From the NCBI GenBank assembly GCA_911728435.2, contig OU452213.1:6489834-6553833 (forward strand): a stretch of DNA of 64,000 nt. Direction: 5' to 3'. Shown here one piece after another: positions 2,816-49,129 of the stretch. A program made the translations under genes and the position numbers. Below the pieces are notes generated by a model. That model was not told where the DNA came from. It made no database searches and was given only the letters and a program-made list of their open reading frames with translations. The DNA is from Apoderus coryli (taxonomy: Eukaryota > Arthropoda > Insecta > Coleoptera > Attelabidae). The stretch's first letter is position 1; each line of letters starts with the position of its first letter.

Positions 2816-3588
2816 GTCCATGGGTGTATATTTATGTTTCAAGATAAATAAGGAAAAAAAATTCATATTTAATGTTTCTTTCTAAATTGAAAAATGAAAA
2901 AGTTCAAGGGGAGGGGTGGCAAATTTCAGCGGAACACCCTGTACGTTACGTTTTAGAACAGAAAATGCCAGAGTGCAGCTTTAGAAATAAAGCAAGCCTT
3001 ATTATTGTATGTGTACCTATAGTTTGCATTACATATAAAGTGAATATATTCGAACATTTTAAGAGTGTCAAGGTCGGCAGTTCGGTCTCCGTTTGTGCAT
3101 TTATACAACATACATACAACCGCAATTGCACCAATGCAACCCAAAACACATTTTGTATTTTATATTTCACGAATTACCCGCCAGCGCGAAACCAAACCGT
3201 ACCTATAACATTCATTCTATAGTTTGTTGTTGTGTGTATGTGTTTTTTTTTTTCGACTTTTAATTTTTCTTATACTTAGTGAGATTTAATTTTTCCGCAT
3301 ATGTCATACGTATACCTACACCTACTTTGTGTATACTTAACTAATCTTTAAACTTGTGATTTGAAGGACTCTTTGTTTTATTGTTAATATTTTCAGTGCC
3401 ATAATACATTTTGTTGCGTTCGATTTTTCTTGACAAACAAAGGAAATTGCAGATCGATGTAAGTACCTAAATACCTACTTGAAATATTTTTTAATGAATT
3501 CTTGTTTAATAAATACCGGATGTCCGGAAACTTAACCAACAGACAAACAGCAGAATATAGGGATGATTTAATGTTTTAATGTTACTTA
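2816..3588. other. AT-rich spacer, possible old element end
   Basis: A frame of 116 codons at 2872-3222 has no recognisable domain, and its reverse complement is also open, so I do not call it a gene. The string AACACCCTGTA near 2933 resembles the CAGGGTG-type termini seen elsewhere in this window, but no partner end was found. Confidence 0.4.
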
Positions 3589-3589
3589 A

Positions 3590-5600
3590 ATATAATAATA
3601 ATAATAATAATAATAGCCTTTATTTGCCCAACAGTACAAAAACCCTTTACAGGACAAATAATTTAATAATTTTAAACCTAAATCATAATTCACCAATGCA
3701 CAAAATAAATAAAAGTAAAATGAGTACCTATATCTAATTACCGAAGTGTTGGATGGCAACTTCCAGAACCTCTCTCATCTCAGAATTGAAAATGTCACAG
3801 TCTGCACAAATCAAGTTATAATTACCACACATAATATTGACAGGAGAACGCAGCAACACATTGGTTCTAGCTCTCGCAATGTGAAAAGTTGAATCTAGTT
3901 TCAAATCTCGGAACATTAATATTTACATTCATTAACATTTCAGAACAGTCAACCTTTCCATGTAGAAGCTTATACAAATACTCAATTGAATTCAAAATTC
4001 TTCTCTTTTCCAAGCTCCGCATATCAAATCTAGTCAACAATATATTATAGTCAACTCCCCTTTCAGGATATATTCCATCTTCCTTATACAAAGAAATTTA
4101 CGCTGCATTTTTTCAATTGCAACTTTATGAACATTATATATAGGGTACCAGACTAACGAACCGTATTCAAGCTTAGGCCGAATGTATGTAGAAAAAAGAA
4201 TTTGTAAAGCAAGAATATTATTGAAGCCTTTTGTATTTCTCATAATGAAACCATAGGTTTTATTGGCTTCCGCTGTCTTAGTTAATATGTGTTCAGCAAA
4301 ACTAAGTTTAGAGTCAAAGATGATTCCCAGGTCAGTCACTGTCTCAGAGGATGTTATGGCTGTGTCATTTATGCTGTAGTTATATTGAATATTTTGTTTT
4401 TTCTTTGTATACATCACGATTTTACATTTTGCTGGATTAAGAGGTAAATGGTTAGTTTGACACCATTCCGATACATGATTCAAATTTCCTTGAAGCTCAT
4501 TACAATTATTCATATTTTCTATTTGAAGAAAAATTTTTAAGTCGTCAGCAAACATTAACTTGCCACAGGTCAGTCTTTCTTCCAAATCATTAACAAACAA
4601 TAAAAACAATAAGGGCCCAAGGTTTGAACCTTGAGGAACTCCAGAAACTGCATGGAAGGGAACTGATTTGTAACCGTTATGTGACACAATCTGTTCTCTT
4701 TCCAACAGATAAGATTTCAAAAAGATTTGCAAGTCCTTAACAAAGCCGAACTTGTCCAATTTCATTAGCAATCTGCCATGATCCACCCTGTCAAACGCCT
4801 TCGCGAAGTCCGTATAGATCACATCCATCCGACCACCACTGTCAATCACCTCTGAGATACTTTGTGATATTAAAGTTAAATTACTTATAGTGGATTTCTT
4901 TGACATGAATCCGTGCTGAATTGGTGTGATCATGTTTCGGACAGAGGGATAGATGCGACCAAACAATACAGTTTCAAAGATCTTACAAAAATTTGACAGA
5001 ATTGATATAGGCCTGTAGTTGCCAATATTTGATTTATCCGCCGACTTGAACACTGGTACAATCCTCGACTTTTTCCACTCAGTTGGAAATACACCACTAT
5101 TTATAGCCAAATTAAAAATAAAACATAAGGGGCCAACTAAAACCGGAACACAATCCCTAACCAAAAACGATGGTATACCATCAGGTCCAGAAGTCAGTTT
5201 ATTCTTGAGATTTTTACCCGCTATTAAAATTTCATTCTCAGTTATAGTTTCAATGCTGACTGGGTCCACACAAGATGAAAATCGCGGTTCATCCAGACTT
5301 TCTGACGAACGAAATTATCAACTATATCCTGAGGATTGTTGTATTCCATATCATTATACGTCATTACTGCTGGTACCATCGACGAGTTACTTTTTGAATG
5401 AAAATATTTCCAGAATTCCCTTGGTTCATTTTTGATATTGTTTTGGATTCTTTCAATATCGTTTTTATAAGCAGTTCGAGTATCACTTTTGATTTGTAAT
5501 CGAAGTGATCTAAATTTTTCTAAATAATATTGATCACCTTTCACCTTTGATCACAATTCATCCACTACTAACCCAGTTCTATATGCTGTGCAATTTTTCT
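3590..5600 (-). pseudogene. Jockey/CR1-type LINE, 5'-truncated, reverse transcriptase
   Basis: Non-LTR retrotransposon ORF2 on the minus strand. From 5' to 3': the endonuclease-RT linker (5544-5242, with FWKYFHSKSNSS); RT fingers (TSGPDGIPSFLVRDC, NYRPISIL, QHGFMSKKST); the first catalytic Asp in YTDFAKAFDRVDH; SGVPQGSNLGPLLF; the FADDLKIF catalytic box; WCQTNHLPLNPAKC; DLGIIFDSKLSF; and the C-terminal YLYKLLHGKVDC and RTNVLLRSP segments (4091-3734). The main open stretch is 5269-4034. The parts lie in different frames around 5250, 4060 and 3900, so at least three frameshifts kill it. The endonuclease domain is absent, the usual result of incomplete target-primed reverse transcription. The 3' end is a (TTA)n tail at 3592-3615. 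It lies head-to-head with the next LINE remnant. Confidence 0.9.
3591..3616. repeat. (ATA)n/(TTA)n microsatellite, LINE 3' tail
   Basis: About eight ATA/TAA triplets lie directly after the minus-strand LINE 3' UTR (AATAAAGGC before the repeat on the minus strand). Simple-repeat tails of this kind are usual for several LINE clades. Confidence 0.8.
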
Positions 5601-8518: not shown

Positions 8519-8733
8519 CTACAATCATTTCTAAATTATTTACTTTGAAGAAAAACGGGATTTCAAAAACACTATCTTATTTATCAGAACTAAATTCCTC
8601 ACTAATCGTTTGCGTTTTTTGTTGAAATAAAAACTGCAGATACGTGTAGGAAAAGAATTTACACCGTTTATTTTAGTCTTTTCATTGATTCAGTTTGGTT
8701 GCTTCTCAAGTTATTTTACTTTTACCGTACAAA

Positions 8734-9798
8734 ATGATTTATTCCATTCTAGAACGAGTTGAAATTGTTAAACTTTATTTTCAAAATAATAGTAGTGCTA
8801 GACTTACGGCTCGCTTATTTAATGAGAGACATCCCGATAAAAATGTGAATGATGTGTACGTTGGCAAGTTAGTTAAAAAGTTTGTAGATGTCTGTAATGT
8901 AAAACACCAGCCGCAGAAACCGATCAGAAATGAAGCTGTGGAAGTCGCTGTTTTAGGGCATGTTGAAATGGATCATAGTCAAAGTACCCGTCAACTAGCT
9001 GAAGCCTCAGGTGTCTCCCGTTCGTCCATAATACGAATTTTAAAAGCGTACAAATTTCATCCGTACAAAATCAAATTAGTACAGGAACTAAATGAGGATG
9101 ATCCTGATAGAAGGCTGCAATTTTGTGAAGCAATGAGCCAGCGTTTAATTGAAGATCCGCAATTATTATTTAACATTTGTTTTTCCGACGAATGCACATT
9201 TTATTTGAATGGAGCTGTAAATAGGCACAATTGCCGTTACTGGGATGACAGTAACCCACATTTATTCCGTGAGGTTCATACCCAGTATCCTCAAAAAATA
9301 AACGTCTGGTGTGGCATATTAGGAAATCATATTATAGGACCACTTTTTATTCCTGGAAATTTAACTGGTGAAGTGTACCTAAACATGCTTGAAGACACAA
9401 TTGATCCTTTAATAACACAAATAATAGAAGATGACCAAAATCATACTGCTGATCGGCTTTATTTCCAGCAAGATGGAGCACCTCCGCACTATGTGGCTCC
9501 TGTAAGACAGTTCTTAGATGACCGGTTCCCTGGACGGTGGATTGGAAGGAGGGGCCCAATTGAATGGCCTGCCAGGTCACCGGATTTATCGCCTTTAGAC
9601 TTTTTTCTTTGGGGGCACTTAAAAAATAAATGTTTTGCCATGAAGCCCGAGTCCATAGAAGATCTTCGCCAACGCATTACAGAAGAGTGCAGAAACATAA
9701 CACCTGATATGCTACAAAATGTTAGAAATAGATTTGAACAAAATCTGTATTATTGTATGGAATCAAATGGGTCACATTTTCAACATTTGTTAATGTAA
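8734..9798 (+). CDS. DD41D Tc1/mariner-superfamily transposase
   Basis: A 354-residue transposase for cut-and-paste transposition at TA sites. I start at the ATG at 8734 (MIYSILERVEIVKLYF); the frame is open upstream but lacks an earlier ATG. Residues 1-60 resemble the N-terminal helix-turn-helix found in insect mariner relatives with a DUF4817-like domain. A second HTH follows (TRQLAEASGVSRSSIIRIL, about 95-115). The DDE/D core has the first Asp in CFSDECTFYLNG, the second in YFQQDGAPPHY and the third in SPDLSPLDFFLWG. I count 41 residues between the second and third Asp, hence DD41D rather than the mariner DD34D or Tc1 DD34E. WIGRRGPIEWPARSP is the conserved run before the third Asp. No stop or frameshift. 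Centrally placed between long TIRs. Expression cannot be judged from sequence. Confidence 0.93.
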   Translation: MIYSILERVEIVKLYFQNNSSARLTARLFNERHPDKNVNDVYVGKLVKKFVDVCNVKHQPQKPIRNEAVEVAVLGHVEMDHSQSTRQLAEASGVSRSSIIRILKAYKFHPYKIKLVQELNEDDPDRRLQFCEAMSQRLIEDPQLLFNICFSDECTFYLNGAVNRHNCRYWDDSNPHLFREVHTQYPQKINVWCGILGNHIIGPLFIPGNLTGEVYLNMLEDTIDPLITQIIEDDQNHTADRLYFQQDGAPPHYVAPVRQFLDDRFPGRWIGRRGPIEWPARSPDLSPLDFFLWGHLKNKCFAMKPESIEDLRQRITEECRNITPDMLQNVRNRFEQNLYYCMESNGSHFQHLLM

Positions 9799-27389: not shown

Positions 27390-27791
27390 TCATTTTCGTT
27401 TGTTTGGATCCTGCTGTAATCTTTTACGTTTTGTATTTCTTGCATCTCGCGCATTTTTGAATATCACACTGGTAAACGGGTCAAATACAATTTTGAAGTC
27501 ATTGAAGTATTTTTCTTGGAGTAGCCTGCTCGTAGTATACCAAATTCTTTTTACAGTTGCTTCTTTATATTCAGTTCCGTCAGCTATTCTCATATTTACC
27601 GCATAATCTTTCAATATATTAGCCAAATTATGCAAACTCGTTTCAGCATTCAGTTCGTATTCTCTGGTCGCACAAAACTCGAGAAATATTTTCCATACAT
27701 ATTTTTTTGATTTGATTGTATTTTTTGGTATATTATTAGATATAATATCATTAAGTGCATCGTTAGATGCAATACCAAATCTTCGCGACAT
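27390..27791 (-). pseudogene. Crypton-like tyrosine recombinase, N-terminal fragment
   Basis: 133 codons from ATG (27791) to a stop created by the deletion joint. The order is NTIKSKKYVWKIFLEFC (core-binding helix), the acidic-hydrophobic region NAETSLHNLANILKDYAVNM, ADGTEYKEATVKRIWYTTSR and FKIVFDPFTSVIFKNARDAR. This matches the N-terminal core-binding domain of Crypton transposases and the host proteins derived from them (the KIAA1958, QRICH1 and ZMYM group). The catalytic domain with R-H-R-Y is absent, so no recombinase activity is expected. Copy B shows how the protein continues. Reading it as a domesticated DNA-binding protein is possible but less likely, given the frame-ending deletion. 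Confidence 0.7.
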
Positions 27792-28039
27792 TTTTAAACC
27801 AGTAGTCAGTCAGTTTGACGTTTAATTAATTTTTAATAAAAAAAACACCAAACTGAAAACACCACATGTAGGGTATTATCGCTGTAATCCAGAGGTGATT
27901 GGATGAAATTTGACACATGAATTAAAATTAAGTAATTTGATTGGTTACTATATTTAGTAAAAAATTATCAATAAAATTTGTGGACCCTCTAGAAATGCGA
28001 TTATATGATTTTTAGAAATTACTAGAAACACCTGGTTGT

Positions 28040-36785: not shown

Positions 36786-36966
36786 TTTTTTAGATAATTT
36801 TTTACTAAATACAGTAACCAATCAAATTACTTAATTCTAAGTCATGTGTCAAATTTCATCCAATCACCTCTGGATTACAGCTATAATACCCCACATGTGG
36901 TGTTTTCAGTTTGGTGTTTTTTTTATTAAAAATTAATTAAACGTCAAACTGACAAATGGTTTAAAA

Positions 36967-37718
36967 ATGTCGCGAAGATTTGGTATTGCATCTAACGATG
37001 CAATTAATGATATTATATCTAATAATATACCAAAAAATACAATCAAATCAAAAAAAATATGTATGGAAAATATTTCTCAGTTTTGTGCGACCAGAGAATA
37101 CGAACTGAATGCTGAAACGAGTTTGCGTAATTTGGCTAATATATTGAAAGTTTATGCGGTAAATATGAGAAAAGCTGACGGAACTGAATATAAAGAAGCA
37201 ACTGTACAAACAATTTGGAATATTACGAGTAGGCTACTCCAGGAAAAATACTTCAATGACTTCAAAATTGTATTCGACCCGTTTACCAGTGTAATATTCA
37301 AAAATGAGAGAGATGTAAGAAATGCAAATCGTAAAAGATTACAGCAGGATCCAAACAAACGAAAATGCAGTTCATCAAATTTGAGTTCAAGTGATTTGGC
37401 TAGAATCATTGGATTATCTGTGAACGTACACCAGAAGGTTTACAAAAAAAAAAATACCATATTGTAGCTGTTGAGTTAGCTTGGCGAGGTGGTGAACCAG
37501 CTGATTGCCTCATAGATTATTTCACGATTGAGAAAAATAATGATGGAACGCCAACCAACAGAATTGAATACAATCCAATATTCAGTAAAACATGCCAAGG
37601 AGGATCGAAAAGTTGTACAAATAGTAAGTGGCTTGTTCCAAATATTGCAACTTCAGCAAACTCTTCTTCCAATTTAACATTTACCAATTGTACTTTTCAC
37701 AAATGTAGTTTTAAATAA
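36967..37718 (+). pseudogene. Crypton-like tyrosine recombinase (frameshifted, catalytic end missing)
   Basis: The ATG at 36967 opens the same N-terminus as copy A (MSRRFGIASNDA, NTIKSKK, NAETSLRNLANIL) and runs through DPNKRKCSSSNLSSSDLARI. A frameshift near 37430 then moves to TPEGLQKKKYHIVAVELAWR followed by GGEPADCLIDYF. The LxxRGGE string matches the first catalytic Arg region of Crypton-type tyrosine recombinases. RIEYNPIFSKTCQGGSKSC follows, then SKWL and a terminal Asn/Ser/Thr-rich tail (NLTFTNCTFHKCSFK) before TAA at 37718. The H-x-x-R and nucleophile Tyr region expected between SKW and that tail is absent, so the protein could not have cut DNA even without the frameshift. Its relation to KIAA1958/ZMYM-type host proteins is by family resemblance only. 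Confidence 0.7.
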
Positions 37719-37820
37719 AAATGAATAATATTTGTTTGATTAAAACTAATACATTTTGTATTGAAAATTATTAAACGTCAGATTGACAATCAAATTTTTG
37801 ATATCTACAAAGTAAAAAAT

Positions 37821-46137: not shown

Positions 46138-46232
46138 TGGACGACGCGACGCGACGTTCCGTGACCGACTTGTCCTTTTTTCGTACGCCACGGCGTACGA
46201 AGGACAAGTCGGTCACGGAACGTGCGCCGTCC
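46138..46232. repeat. GC-rich near-perfect palindrome
   Basis: ACGTTCCGTGACCGACTTGT (from 46154) pairs with ACAAGTCGGTCACGGAACGT (to 46223). A nested inner dyad TCGTACGCC/GGCGTACGA sits at the centre, offset by a small T-run bulge. Outside, GGACGACGC pairs loosely with GCGCCGTCC. The two arms are identical over about 32 bp. Coding-looking frames on both strands come from this symmetry and are not genes. Confidence 0.95.
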
Positions 46233-47469
46233 CAATGCGCATGTCCTCTTCCCGATAGGATACAAAATACAGCAGTTTCCAGTATATATTTTATTTTAAT
46301 TTGAAGAAACAATAATCATAGAATAAGTAAGCTTCGCTAACCAGAAGTTTATCTTCGTGTAAATAGCATTGATTTGTATGGGATTTCTTGAAACTCGCGC
46401 AGATTTTGTGCGCATCATAGTATTGTTCACAATATCAAACAAGCGGGCAATAAATTCTGTACTAACAATTAAAATAGTACAAAATTTTACATAAGCGGAA
46501 TATTTTCGAGCAACTTTCGCAATAAAAAAAAATATGTTTAATTTAAAAAAACTTTATTATAATAATATTTATTTCTGTCTCATTCGTACTCATGTACATA
46601 GACCCGTCGGTAGCCAAAAGTACAAAAATAAAAGTATAAAATACGTATGACTAATAATAAAAACATAATAATAGCTACATAAATATCTACAAATCAACAA
46701 TAAACAATTTAAACAAAACAGAATGACATCATTGTACAACATTATTTAGAAATTTTTGCAAATGTGTTGTCAATTAGAATGTTTTTTACTCACCATATCA
46801 TATTATATTTATATAATATATGTATATGGGTTCTGTTTCGTGAATTTTTTTTAATTCCCCCGGAAAAACGTGTTTTCAGTCATTTATATGTAAATAAGTA
46901 GTTTTAAAAAAATGTCTCTCGGTCTGTATCCCCGATAACTAAAAAACCACTTAACAAATTTGGCACAAAAATACTACAAGATATTATGCAGGTGCTGATT
47001 AACTTGGGCGTATTTAAGGGGTTTTAAAAGGTTAAAAAAATCATACTTCAACTTATTTTTTTTGGTTTAATAGAGTATAACCTAACACATTAACCATAAA
47101 ATTAGATTAGATGGCATAGTGTAAAAAGGGGTTAAAAACTTAAAAAAATATATATTTCCAAAACATAGAAGAAATATTGCCTAGTTATTTATAGCTTTGA
47201 TAGAATATAACCTATGAAATGTATCATAAAAACGTGCTTACCAATCCATTCCTTATTAGTGGAAAAGGGTTCAAAATTAAAAAAATTCCTAGGCTTGAAT
47301 AAATAATATGGAATAATTTAAATAGAAATAAAAAATAGCTGTCTACAATAAAAAAAATATAGCTTGTCATCAAGAGTCTTAGGAAAAAGATAAATGACAA
47401 AAAGGTCACAGAAATATTACTTTTACACTTAAATTTGGAGACTCATGCCTCGACGGCAACAGTTTATTT

Positions 47470-48383
47470 TTCCTTAACATTTCTCTCAGTCTGACAAACC
47501 CTGATTATATCCTCTGGAATACTTTGGCGATTTTTTAAGGAATTTGGGCGCGGTAAATATAATACGGTCTTTCTGGTTGCACCCCATTTTGCTGTGAGAA
47601 AGCTAAAAAGTTGGATCCTTGATCGCCCACTATACCCCGCACATTAAGGCTAATTAAATTAATTTTTTTATTGTTTGAAATATAATATCTTTCAAATATT
47701 CAACTTTACATGAATTGTGGTTTTGTGGTTAAAAAAATGCTAAAAAAAGTTTCTTGTAAGTGTTTTTAGTTTAGATCCAAGAAAATATACAGTTACGGCA
47801 AATTTATAGAACTCACTTGTATATCTCTGACCTTTCAATGATTTCTTCGATAAATTATACTGCATAATAACAAAATTAGCCAAGCCTTCCTTAAAATTAG
47901 TTTTAACAAACTCAATATAATCTTCTTTATCGAATGGTCTGTTCGAAAGTTCCGGTAATTCTATCGAACTTTCTTTTAAGGTTCTGCACCTCCATTTTCA
48001 AGGCTTTTTTCTTGGATATTGCTCAGATGTAATTTAGAATTTCATCTAATACCTACATGAAGATAGAATTTGTAGTTAAAAGGAGCTTACTATCAAAAGG
48101 GTTTTTTTCCAAATTCAAGTCATCAAAAACCAGACATTTTCTCCTCAAAATGTTCACTACAAACTTTGCGGTTAAACACTTTTTCCGGTTCGTTCGATAT
48201 CAAGTCTAACCTGCCAATGTTTTCCACCCATTGAAGTTGCCTTGAAAATTATTTAAAAAATATAGCTAAAACATTCAACATTTTGTGTAAGTACATTACA
48301 TACCTTATTGGATCACTCGGAATTTTGAAATATCTTATTAACTTTCCAGTTTTGTGGCTGTTGTTACTTCAATAATTTGGCAT
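47470..48383 (-). pseudogene. P-element/THAP9-like transposase with intron
   Basis: Minus-strand gene. Exon 1 (48383-48304) starts MPNY, a stop codon where a zinc Cys is expected, then SNNSHKTGKLIRYFKIPSDP and IR. A 63-bp intron (48303-48241) has GT (AAGGTATGT) and AG (TTTTCAAG) ends. Exon 2 joins in frame: QLQWVENIGRLDLISNEPEK then VFNRKVCSEHFEEK, the Trp and C-x2-H part of a THAP zinc finger. Frames then break. LPELSNRPFDKEDYIEFVKT and KSLKGQRYTSEFYKFAVTVY followed by FLGSK (about 47960-47755) form the conserved block after the coiled coil. SLNVRGIVGDQGSNFLAFSQ (about 47650-47590) carries the DQGSN catalytic Asp, followed by GVQPERPYYIY. First zinc Cys pair lost, several stops: dead. Intron-bearing THAP transposase genes are known for this superfamily. 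Confidence 0.88.
48241..48303 (-). other. 63-bp intron in THAP domain
   Basis: Donor GTATGT and acceptor TTTTCAAG are consensus-like. Removal restores a continuous THAP reading frame (SDPIR|QLQWVENIG). It is short, typical of small insect introns. Confidence 0.75.
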
Positions 48384-49129
48384 TGTCTTTCACCACACCA
48401 AATATTTATGTAGGTACACAATTATTAATCTATGATTTCACTAACAGTTAATTAAATAAACACTATTACACTATTGTTCTTAAAACTAGAATTAAATAAA
48501 TCTTATAACCAAATAACTAATAAAAATGGAAAAACGTTGAAAACTTTTTAGAAAATGGAATAAACGAATGTAAACAATCATTAATATTCGTCCATATTGG
48601 AATTTTACCCAATTCGACAGCTTGCGCACAAAATCGCGCGAACAAACACAAAATCCCATCCAAATCGTCAAGTAAAACTTCTGGTTAGCGTAGCTTTCTT
48701 ATTCTATGCAATAATTAAGAAACGATGTATTGTATTGCTGTAATTTTACGTACGAGGGCATGTTCAAATGTATAACCAACAAGTAGAAAATAGCAAGATC
48801 TACGGAAATTAAACACTTTAAATATATTGATATACTGAGCAAAAGTGTGCAGTAACATGAATGCGTTTAAGAACTGCATATTTTGTTATGTTGAATTGAA
48901 TTCTAAAACTTTTGTTTTTGTTAATTTTATCCGAGTTACGAAACCTTCATGAAGTATTTTGGCCACTTTTTTTCCTGCGAACAAGTTAGGTGTACCTAAC
49001 TATTCCTCAGTATTAAAAATTTAATTTCATTTGTGAAATTCGACAACTTTTTAAGACTTTTGCAGACACCCTGTATGTCAGATGTGTGATTCTCTATTCT
49101 TGATCATGGCGTTCATTTCAGTGTTCTAA

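What the first reader, a model, noticed from the sequence alone, without database searches (positions are those of the whole stretch)
46317..48708. P-superfamily element with THAP domain, visible intron and 7-bp target duplication
The interior encodes three independent P/THAP9 transposase blocks (THAP C-x2-H part, KGQRYTSEFYKFAV block, DQGSN catalytic block). A 63-bp intron removes cleanly to restore the THAP frame. The ends are CA...TG inverted repeats of about 110 bp with a perfect CAATAAT duplication. No long frame survives, so an ORF-based annotation would miss it. Seen directly: the ends, the duplication, the intron borders and the blocks. Known: P elements have introns, THAP domains and 7-8-bp duplications. 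Inferred: this is a decayed member of a lineage that may still have autonomous copies in this genome.
Basis: partly seen in the sequence, partly recalled or inferred. Interest (0 to 1): 0.8.

Follow-up and report, generated by a model that had tools for sequence, protein, structure and literature searches.

The report
Amplified, gene-dead P-element family copy
The 2.4-kb stretch is a copy of a P-type jumping gene whose own enzyme was already broken before the family spread through this insect-like genome, so it was probably moved by an enzyme borrowed from a relative; it is a clear but ordinary case of a known kind.

Summary
Window 46317-48708 is a complete DNA transposon copy: 39-bp terminal inverted repeats, a perfect 7-bp duplication, a THAP/P-type transposase relic on the minus strand and a 63-bp intron. 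Genome copies confirm the borders: 20 of 27 aligned copies have a perfect 7-bp duplication, and five copies have empty paralogous counterparts carrying that 7-mer once. The interpretation needs one change. This is not a lone decayed copy of an active element. It belongs to a high-copy family (A) already defective when it amplified: the consensus of 27 copies has no frame above 102 aa, every fetched copy that could be measured lacks one THAP zinc cysteine and the first catalytic aspartate, and the residual HTH block drifts neutrally. A sister family (B) in the same genome has nearly identical ends and a nearly complete P transposase gene (three Pfam TNP-like domains; E = 7e-38 to Drosophila P transposase 6P5A). 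The two B copies found that reach the end of the gene have broken frames, so no working enzyme is shown. The target preference (7 bp, commonest letters GTANTAC) matches Drosophila Galileo rather than canonical P (8 bp). New member of a known kind.

The parts
46317..48708 (-). whole element (family A copy), 2392 bp; transposase sense strand is minus
   Evidence: TIRs, TSD, and 40 scored places in the genome including itself
46310..46316 (.). left target-site duplication CAATAAT
48709..48715 (.). right target-site duplication CAATAAT
46317..46355 (+). terminal inverted repeat (3' end of the element in sense direction)
   Evidence: 39 nt, 90% complementary to 48670-48708
48670..48708 (-). terminal inverted repeat (5' end in sense direction)
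   Evidence: nearly identical in family B
46378..46386 (+). subterminal inverted motif ATGGGATTT; partner at 48651-48659
   Evidence: exact in 25 (5') and 24 (3') of 27 copies; a role as transposase-binding site is inference
48651..48659 (-). partner of the ATGGGATTT subterminal motif
46402..46414 (+). subterminal inverted motif GATTTTGTGCGCA; partner at 48623-48635
   Evidence: exact in 24 (5') and 25 (3') of 27 copies, present at both ends of L068 and L069
48623..48635 (-). partner of the GATTTTGTGCGCA subterminal motif
48306..48383 (-). THAP relic, first coding part, from MPNY (a stop follows); 15 bp containing the second zinc cysteine are missing relative to family B
   Evidence: Pfam THAP with joined exons
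48241..48303 (-). 63-bp GT-AG intron inside the THAP domain
   Evidence: also present in family B; splicing not tested
48135..48239 (-). THAP relic, second part with the C-x2-H zinc pair (CSEHF)
48126..48135 (.). join of a deletion of about 180 bp at a short direct repeat (CTGGTTTT); not seen in the 22 other copies measured here
47767..47970 (-). HTH block (KGQRYTSEFYKFAV)
   Evidence: PF12017 sub-threshold; the search with the family block finds it at 89% aa
47735..47755 (-). approximate join where about 290 bp, including the first catalytic Asp, are missing relative to family B
47559..47657 (-). DQGSN block (second catalytic Asp)
   Evidence: matched by eye with the D303 region of Drosophila P through family B

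Best explanation
Window 46317-48708 is a copy of a non-autonomous P-superfamily family (A) that spread by cut-and-paste transposition in trans. Shown: repeated borders, 7-bp duplications, empty counterpart sites, defects shared by the copies measured, and a sister family (B) with nearly identical ends and a near-complete P transposase gene. Inferred: a transposase of B or of a common ancestor bound the ends of A, excised it and inserted it at GTANTAC-like 7-mers; gap repair after excision and slippage at short repeats produced the internal deletions, including the one in this copy.
For: Copies: 40 scored of 3607 candidates, all related. The consensus of 27 of 30 fetched loci (3 lacked a findable 5' end) has no frame above 102 aa; copies are 95.2-99.4% identical to it over aligned bases. 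Shared defects: THAP zinc interval shortened in 24 of 30, 6 not measurable, against unshortened in 4 of 4 B copies; first-catalytic-Asp segment missing in 29 of 30, 1 not measurable, against present in 4 of 4 B copies. Neutral drift of 70 HTH codons in 27 copies: 14 synonymous, 40 nonsynonymous, 3 stops against 11.8/41.4/3.8 expected. TSD: 20 of 27 perfect 7-mers; T at position 2 in 21 of 21 and A at position 6 in 18 of 21 sites, L069 of family B included. Empty paralogous sites for L003, L014, L024, L029, L030. Family B: 5563-bp element with both TIRs, PF21787, PF21788, PF21789, 6P5A E 7e-38 over 406 query residues. First 200 bp and last about 270 bp of A and B: 454 of 465 identical.
Against: No intact transposase with these ends was found, so the helper is inferred. 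Three of 27 copies (L002, L009, L021) show no duplication, and the full-length B copy L067 lacks a matching one; L025 has 8 bp. The terminal stretches compared between A and B were chosen after looking: against the gene part (777 of 835) they differ at p 2.6e-4, but the whole 5' noncoding part (305 of 318) differs at p 0.075 and the whole aligned 3' part (400 of 432) not at all (p 0.82). About 560 bp of A (consensus 1360-1661 and 1796-2059) have no match in the one full-length B copy read.
Confidence: 0.9

Rival explanations
1. Family A copies are independently decayed remnants of many formerly autonomous insertions.
For: Each copy has private changes; 541 of 2604 consensus columns differ in just one copy.
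Against: The inactivating losses are shared by the copies in which they could be measured (24 of 30 and 29 of 30) and the consensus lacks a long frame.
Confidence: 0.05
2. Family A encodes a KP-like repressor or dominant-negative protein from its THAP/HTH remains and is kept for that.
For: Many copies keep an open HTH block, with open stretches of up to 302 aa around it; small P elements can encode repressors such as the 207-aa KP protein (PMC7776569, passages). Between the A consensus and B the same block has 4 synonymous and 7 nonsynonymous changes in 66 codons, fewer nonsynonymous ones than free drift would give, which may just reflect the time when the gene still worked.
Against: Among the A copies the block changes as expected without selection (14/40/3 observed, 11.8/41.4/3.8 expected), and the THAP zinc site is broken.
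Confidence: 0.04
3. The relic belongs to another superfamily (hAT, piggyBac, Kolobok or similar) that merely carries a THAP domain.
For: THAP domains occur in other proteins (recalled).
Against: The sister gene has the three P-type TNP-like domains above cut-off and no other Pfam family at E 0.01 or better, and aligns with Drosophila P transposase including the DEM, DQGSN and LNQD..E regions; ends are CA..TG with 7-bp duplications.
Confidence: 0.01

Closest known systems
Galileo (P superfamily, Drosophila)
   Same: 7-bp duplications with occasional 8 bp and target consensus GTANTAC (PMC2775673 and PMC4168063, passages); the commonest letters here are also G-T-A-N-T-A-C; Galileo subfamilies share almost identical terminal 40 bp and are thought to use one transposase (PMC2775673, passage).
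   Different: Galileo has very long, internally repetitive TIRs; here the TIR is 39 bp with two subterminal motifs. Sequence relation to Galileo transposase was not tested.
Drosophila P element and its internally deleted derivatives (KP type)
   Same: THAP domain, HTH, RNase H and GTP-binding-insertion domains, introns, short TIR plus subterminal repeats, internally deleted non-autonomous copies (PMC7776569, passages); the family B protein aligns at E 7e-38.
   Different: P makes 8-bp duplications; here 7. Family A is a diverged and amplified derivative; L068 and L069 of family B are the closer KP analogues.
Zebrafish Pdre2 / THAP9 P-like elements
   Same: THAP9-type transposase with internally deleted copies sharing the ends (PMC10983969 and PMC7776569, passages).
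   Different: 13-bp TIR, 8-bp duplications.
P0001 (727 aa, unnamed protein, source code lgn)
   Same: 77% identical over 95% of the family B catalytic open frame, with PF12017, PF21787, PF21788, PF21789.
   Different: Host and ends unknown. Named hits are further off: Zophobas morio 43% over 89% of the query (best-scoring named one), Aphis glycines 43% over 92%, Holotrichia oblita 55% over 64%, Popillia japonica 49% over 68% (best 120 of 173 listed).

Membership tests
P superfamily (THAP9/P transposase) | transposase with P-type RNase H-like core split by a GTP-binding insertion domain | tested here: met
   On sister family B: PF21787 112.8 bits, PF21788 69.1, PF21789 40.6, all above cut-off; 6P5A E 7e-38. 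In the window copy just the DQGSN part is left.
P superfamily (THAP9/P transposase) | N-terminal THAP domain | tested here: met
   42.3 bits, cut-off 23.9, from window letters with the intron taken out and X at stops; one zinc cysteine lost in the family.
P superfamily (THAP9/P transposase) | catalytic D, D, E | tested here: met
   Family B: IDEM, SDQGSN and LNQDSLEN lie opposite AFDEM, SDLGTG and LNQDIVEH of Drosophila P, which I take by eye for the D230, D303 and E531 regions named in PMC8230255 (passages). Family A lacks the first and, with the rest of the gene, the third.
P superfamily (THAP9/P transposase) | short TIRs beginning CA and ending TG | tested here: met
   Window copy; 25 of 27 copies begin CATAGAATAA and 23 of 27 end TTATTCTATG at the borders used (L028's border there was wrong).
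canonical P element | 8-bp target-site duplication | tested here: not met
   20 of 27 are perfect 7-mers, 1 of 27 is an 8-mer.
Galileo | 7-bp duplication with GTANTAC preference | tested here: met
   against PMC4168063 (passages).
Galileo | long internally repetitive TIRs | tested here: not met
   39-bp TIR, no long foldback arms.
Galileo | transposase falls in the Galileo clade | not tested
   No Galileo transposase sequence was at hand.
non-autonomous family mobilised in trans | copies share defects that predate amplification and share ends with a coding family | tested here: met
non-autonomous family mobilised in trans | helper transposase acts on its ends | not testable with these tools
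   needs a bench assay.

The most novel reading that the evidence does not exclude
Families A and B are short-TIR members of a 7-bp, GTANTAC-targeting branch of the P superfamily that is not confined to Drosophila Galileo, so that duplication length and target sequence would be a property of a transposase clade older than flies; in this genome the branch has been driven to loss of its last intact helper by its own deletion derivatives.
Probability: 0.25. Interest if true: 0.5.

Novelty: new member of a known kind. Interest (0 to 1): 0.3.

Why it matters
It gives a clean case, outside the classic fly systems, of a P-type transposon and the gene-dead derivative that used its machinery, with borders fixed by empty sites. 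The terminal 200-270 bp, the best-kept stretches between the two families, point to the DNA the transposase may need. The Galileo-like 7-bp target in an element with ordinary short TIRs makes it testable whether target length and sequence follow the transposase lineage.

Tried and rejected
Pfam on the DQGSN block alone gave nothing, so the link to P runs through family B. The 859-aa P family (C), at first a candidate helper, was rejected: it is 30% identical to B and its 7713-bp unit has no such ends. A 717-aa family (D) was rejected as a helper because its left end reads CCCAGATAAACAGG (right end not reached). L037, which contains CATAGAATAAG, was examined: the motif lies outside its transposase gene and, by eye, in the wrong direction. 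A search for an empty site of the window copy itself did not complete. A KP-like repressor role was rejected on the neutral pattern among copies. My first A-to-B count for the HTH block (6 synonymous, 20 nonsynonymous) ran past the deletion join and is withdrawn; the recount over 66 codons is 4 and 7. That the ends are better kept than the gene holds for the terminal 200 and 270 bp chosen after looking, not for the whole noncoding parts. An extended 19-bp palindromic target was tested: observed mean 3.10 matches of 9, random 2.53 with sd 0.31 and a maximum of 3.67 in 2000 draws, so it is not claimed. Host species was not identified; an insect, perhaps a beetle, rests on the named hits. Family B copy counts and 'no intact copy found' are limited because 70 of 1096 candidates were scored. 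An exact-pattern count of the shared defects gave 20, 16 and 21 of 30 for the zinc loss, one in-frame stop and the join of the 290-bp loss, because point changes broke the patterns; the interval measure replaces the first and third, and 16 of 30 stands for the stop.

Full report
What is there. The window lies in a 428-Mb, 129-contig genome (G000, C21). At 46317-48708 there is a 2392-bp element with 39-bp terminal inverted repeats (90% complementary) and a perfect 7-bp duplication CAATAAT on both sides. On the minus strand it holds pieces of a transposase: a THAP relic interrupted by a 63-bp GT-AG intron (48303 to 48241), an HTH block and a DQGSN block. The longest stop-to-stop stretch is 85 aa. 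Taking the intron out and putting X at stops, the THAP part matches PF05485 at 42.3 bits (cut-off 23.9); the HTH block matches PF12017 below cut-off (15.7 bits against 23); the third block alone matches nothing.

Borders. The own-genome search scored 40 of 3607 candidate places and found related DNA at all 40. Of 30 loci fetched, 27 had both ends and were aligned; L006, L007 and L015 lacked a findable 5' end. At the borders, 20 of 27 have a perfect 7-bp duplication; L011 and L018 have one mismatch, L025 has a perfect 8-bp one, L028 has a perfect 7-bp one with the border found, and L002, L009 and L021 have none. Joined flanks of the copies hit uninterrupted paralogous sequence in other loci or in the window: for L003, L014, L024, L029 and L030 the counterpart carries the duplicated 7-mer once. 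For L014, L024 and L030 these are 89-97% identical; for L003 and L029 87% and 82%. L012 also found a 75% partner, within its own locus, with one mismatch in the 7-mer; it is not counted. This fixes both ends and the duplication length.

Target. Over 21 sites (20 of family A plus L069 of family B) position 2 is T in 21 and position 6 is A in 18; NTNNNAN occurs in 18 of 21 against a background of 11%, RTNNNAY in 12 of 21 against 2.5% (binomial tails below 1e-13). The commonest letters read G-T-A-N-T-A-C (12, 21, 12, tie, 10, 18 and 8 of 21). Galileo of Drosophila makes 7-bp duplications with consensus GTANTAC and some 8-bp cases (PMC4168063 and PMC2775673, passages), while P elements and zebrafish Pdre2 make 8-bp ones (PMC7776569 and PMC10983969, passages). 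The window copy's own 7-mer, ATTATTG in sense, fits at position 2 and not at position 6.

Family A was dead before it spread. Copies are 95.2-99.4% identical to the 27-copy majority consensus, whose longest stop-to-stop stretch is 102 aa. Compared with the coding sister family B, the interval around the first THAP zinc pair is shortened in 24 of 30 loci (19 nt in 23, 16 nt in L009, instead of 34) and not measurable in 6; the lost 15 bp include the second cysteine. The segment with the first catalytic aspartate is gone in 29 of 30 (57-68 nt instead of 352-357) and not measurable in L017. The exact B-type strings at these two places occur in 0 of 30 loci. In 70 codons of the HTH block the 27 copies carry 14 synonymous, 40 nonsynonymous and 3 stop changes; 11.8, 41.4 and 3.8 are expected without selection. 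So copies with no usable gene multiplied, which calls for an enzyme supplied in trans. The window copy has in addition a deletion of about 180 bp at a short direct repeat, not seen in the 22 other loci measured.

Family B. A protein search with the blocks gave, by hand count of the listed rows covering the HTH block, about 73 A-like hits (82-100% amino-acid identity) and about 24 of a second type (85-88%); the list was cut, so both are lower bounds. One of the second type, L067 with L071 (C5), is a 5563-bp element with both ends and a 628-aa open frame. That frame has PF21787, PF21788 and PF21789 and aligns with the Drosophila P transposase structure 6P5A at E 7e-38. A second copy that reaches the end of the gene is L070 (C7; no 3' terminal repeat in the 4.2 kb read), and L068 (2657 bp) and L069 (2630 bp, duplication GTTTCAT) are internal deletion derivatives about 99.2% identical to L067. 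L067 and L070 have frame breaks. Since 70 of 1096 candidates were scored, an intact copy elsewhere is not excluded. The best relative in the protein collection is P0001, 77% identical and 727 aa; named hits include beetles (Zophobas 43%, Holotrichia 55%, Popillia 49%) and aphids (43%), over 64-92% of the query. The host is therefore probably an insect and perhaps a beetle; this was not established.

How it works. In its first 1178 bp, in 1176-1360, in 1661-1796 and in 2059-2604, the A consensus is a gapped version of full-length B (85.5-91.4% by BLAST); about 560 bp in between have no match in that B copy. The first 200 and last about 270 bp are 97.6% identical between A and L069 (454 of 465), the gene part with its introns 93.1% (777 of 835, gaps left out; Fisher p 2.6e-4). 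I chose these terminal stretches after looking: the whole 5' noncoding part is 305 of 318 (p 0.075) and the whole aligned 3' part 400 of 432 (p 0.82), so a general 'ends kept, gene lost' rule is not shown. Both ends carry ATGGGATTT (GTGGGATTT at the 5' end of B) and GATTTTGTGCGCA in inverted order at 50-98 bp, near where Galileo and P have their THAP binding sites (about 70 bp, and 53-63 and 41-51 bp; PMC3688188, passages). The likely mechanism is that of P elements: a B-type transposase binds the ends, cuts the element out and joins it to a 7-bp staggered target; gap repair produces internal deletions. Binding, cutting and helper identity are inferred, not shown.

Alternatives. Independent decay of autonomous copies fails because the defects are shared. 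A KP-like repressor role is unlikely given neutral drift among the copies and the broken zinc site; the A-to-B comparison of the HTH block (4 synonymous, 7 nonsynonymous in 66 codons) is not neutral-looking but covers the time when the gene worked. Another superfamily fails on the domain and structure matches. Families C and D of the same genome are unlikely helpers because the ends seen differ.

Novelty. P-superfamily elements with non-autonomous derivatives are known. Searches of the held library for P element with Coleoptera, transposase and THAP (1 paper, listing seen) and for P transposase, P superfamily, beetle, nonautonomous and Tribolium (listing of 10 of 30 seen) showed no report of this family; the library lacks most subscription papers. 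I file it as a new member of a known kind, with a Galileo-like target as its one unusual trait.

Noticed in passing
L041-L060 and other places in G000, e.g. C1:33197884-33198282: A different P-type family (C): 859-aa open frame with the three TNP-like domains, many copies; 18 of 20 aligned 3.4-kb stretches differ by under 0.15% from their majority (L049 and L055 do not). The repeated unit of two copies is 7713 bp at 99.9% identity, with, by eye, no terminal inverted repeat or duplication and a hairpin near its right edge, and a piggyBac-like (PF13843) fragment upstream; its right 200 bp are 100% identical (rounded) at all 40 places scored of 146. It looks very recently active and oddly built.
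   Followed up: partly
window 27390-27809 and 36937-37467: Two copies of a repeat with short open frames (MSRRFGIASND...), no Pfam match; family A copies L014 and L024 sit in sequence related to the repeat regions at 36793-37820 and 27706-27969, which serve as empty sites.
   Followed up: partly
window 46154-46223: Perfect inverted repeat, 24-nt arms 22 nt apart, about 93 bp left of the element.
   Followed up: no
window 8689-9798: 369-aa uninterrupted frame that looks like a Tc/mariner-type transposase: DUF4817 helix-turn-helix above cut-off, HTH_Tnp_Tc3_2 and DDE_3 below cut-off.
   Followed up: no
L037:3246-3271: CATAGAATAAGGAGGCTACGCTACGG beside a P-type gene: resembles the family A end; perhaps an end of another related family.
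   Followed up: partly
L067 about 3690-4120 and L070 about 3400-3700: Both B copies that reach the end of the gene carry the same remnant behind it, mariner-like by eye (recalled, not searched), although their left flanks differ, so it seems to travel with the element.
   Followed up: partly
G000:C5:6891186-6893000, C13:12659924-12661738, C5:22533822-22535636: A further P family (D) with an uninterrupted 717-aa frame in three copies, 40% identical to B; two copies are 99.9-100% identical in the flanks fetched.
   Followed up: partly
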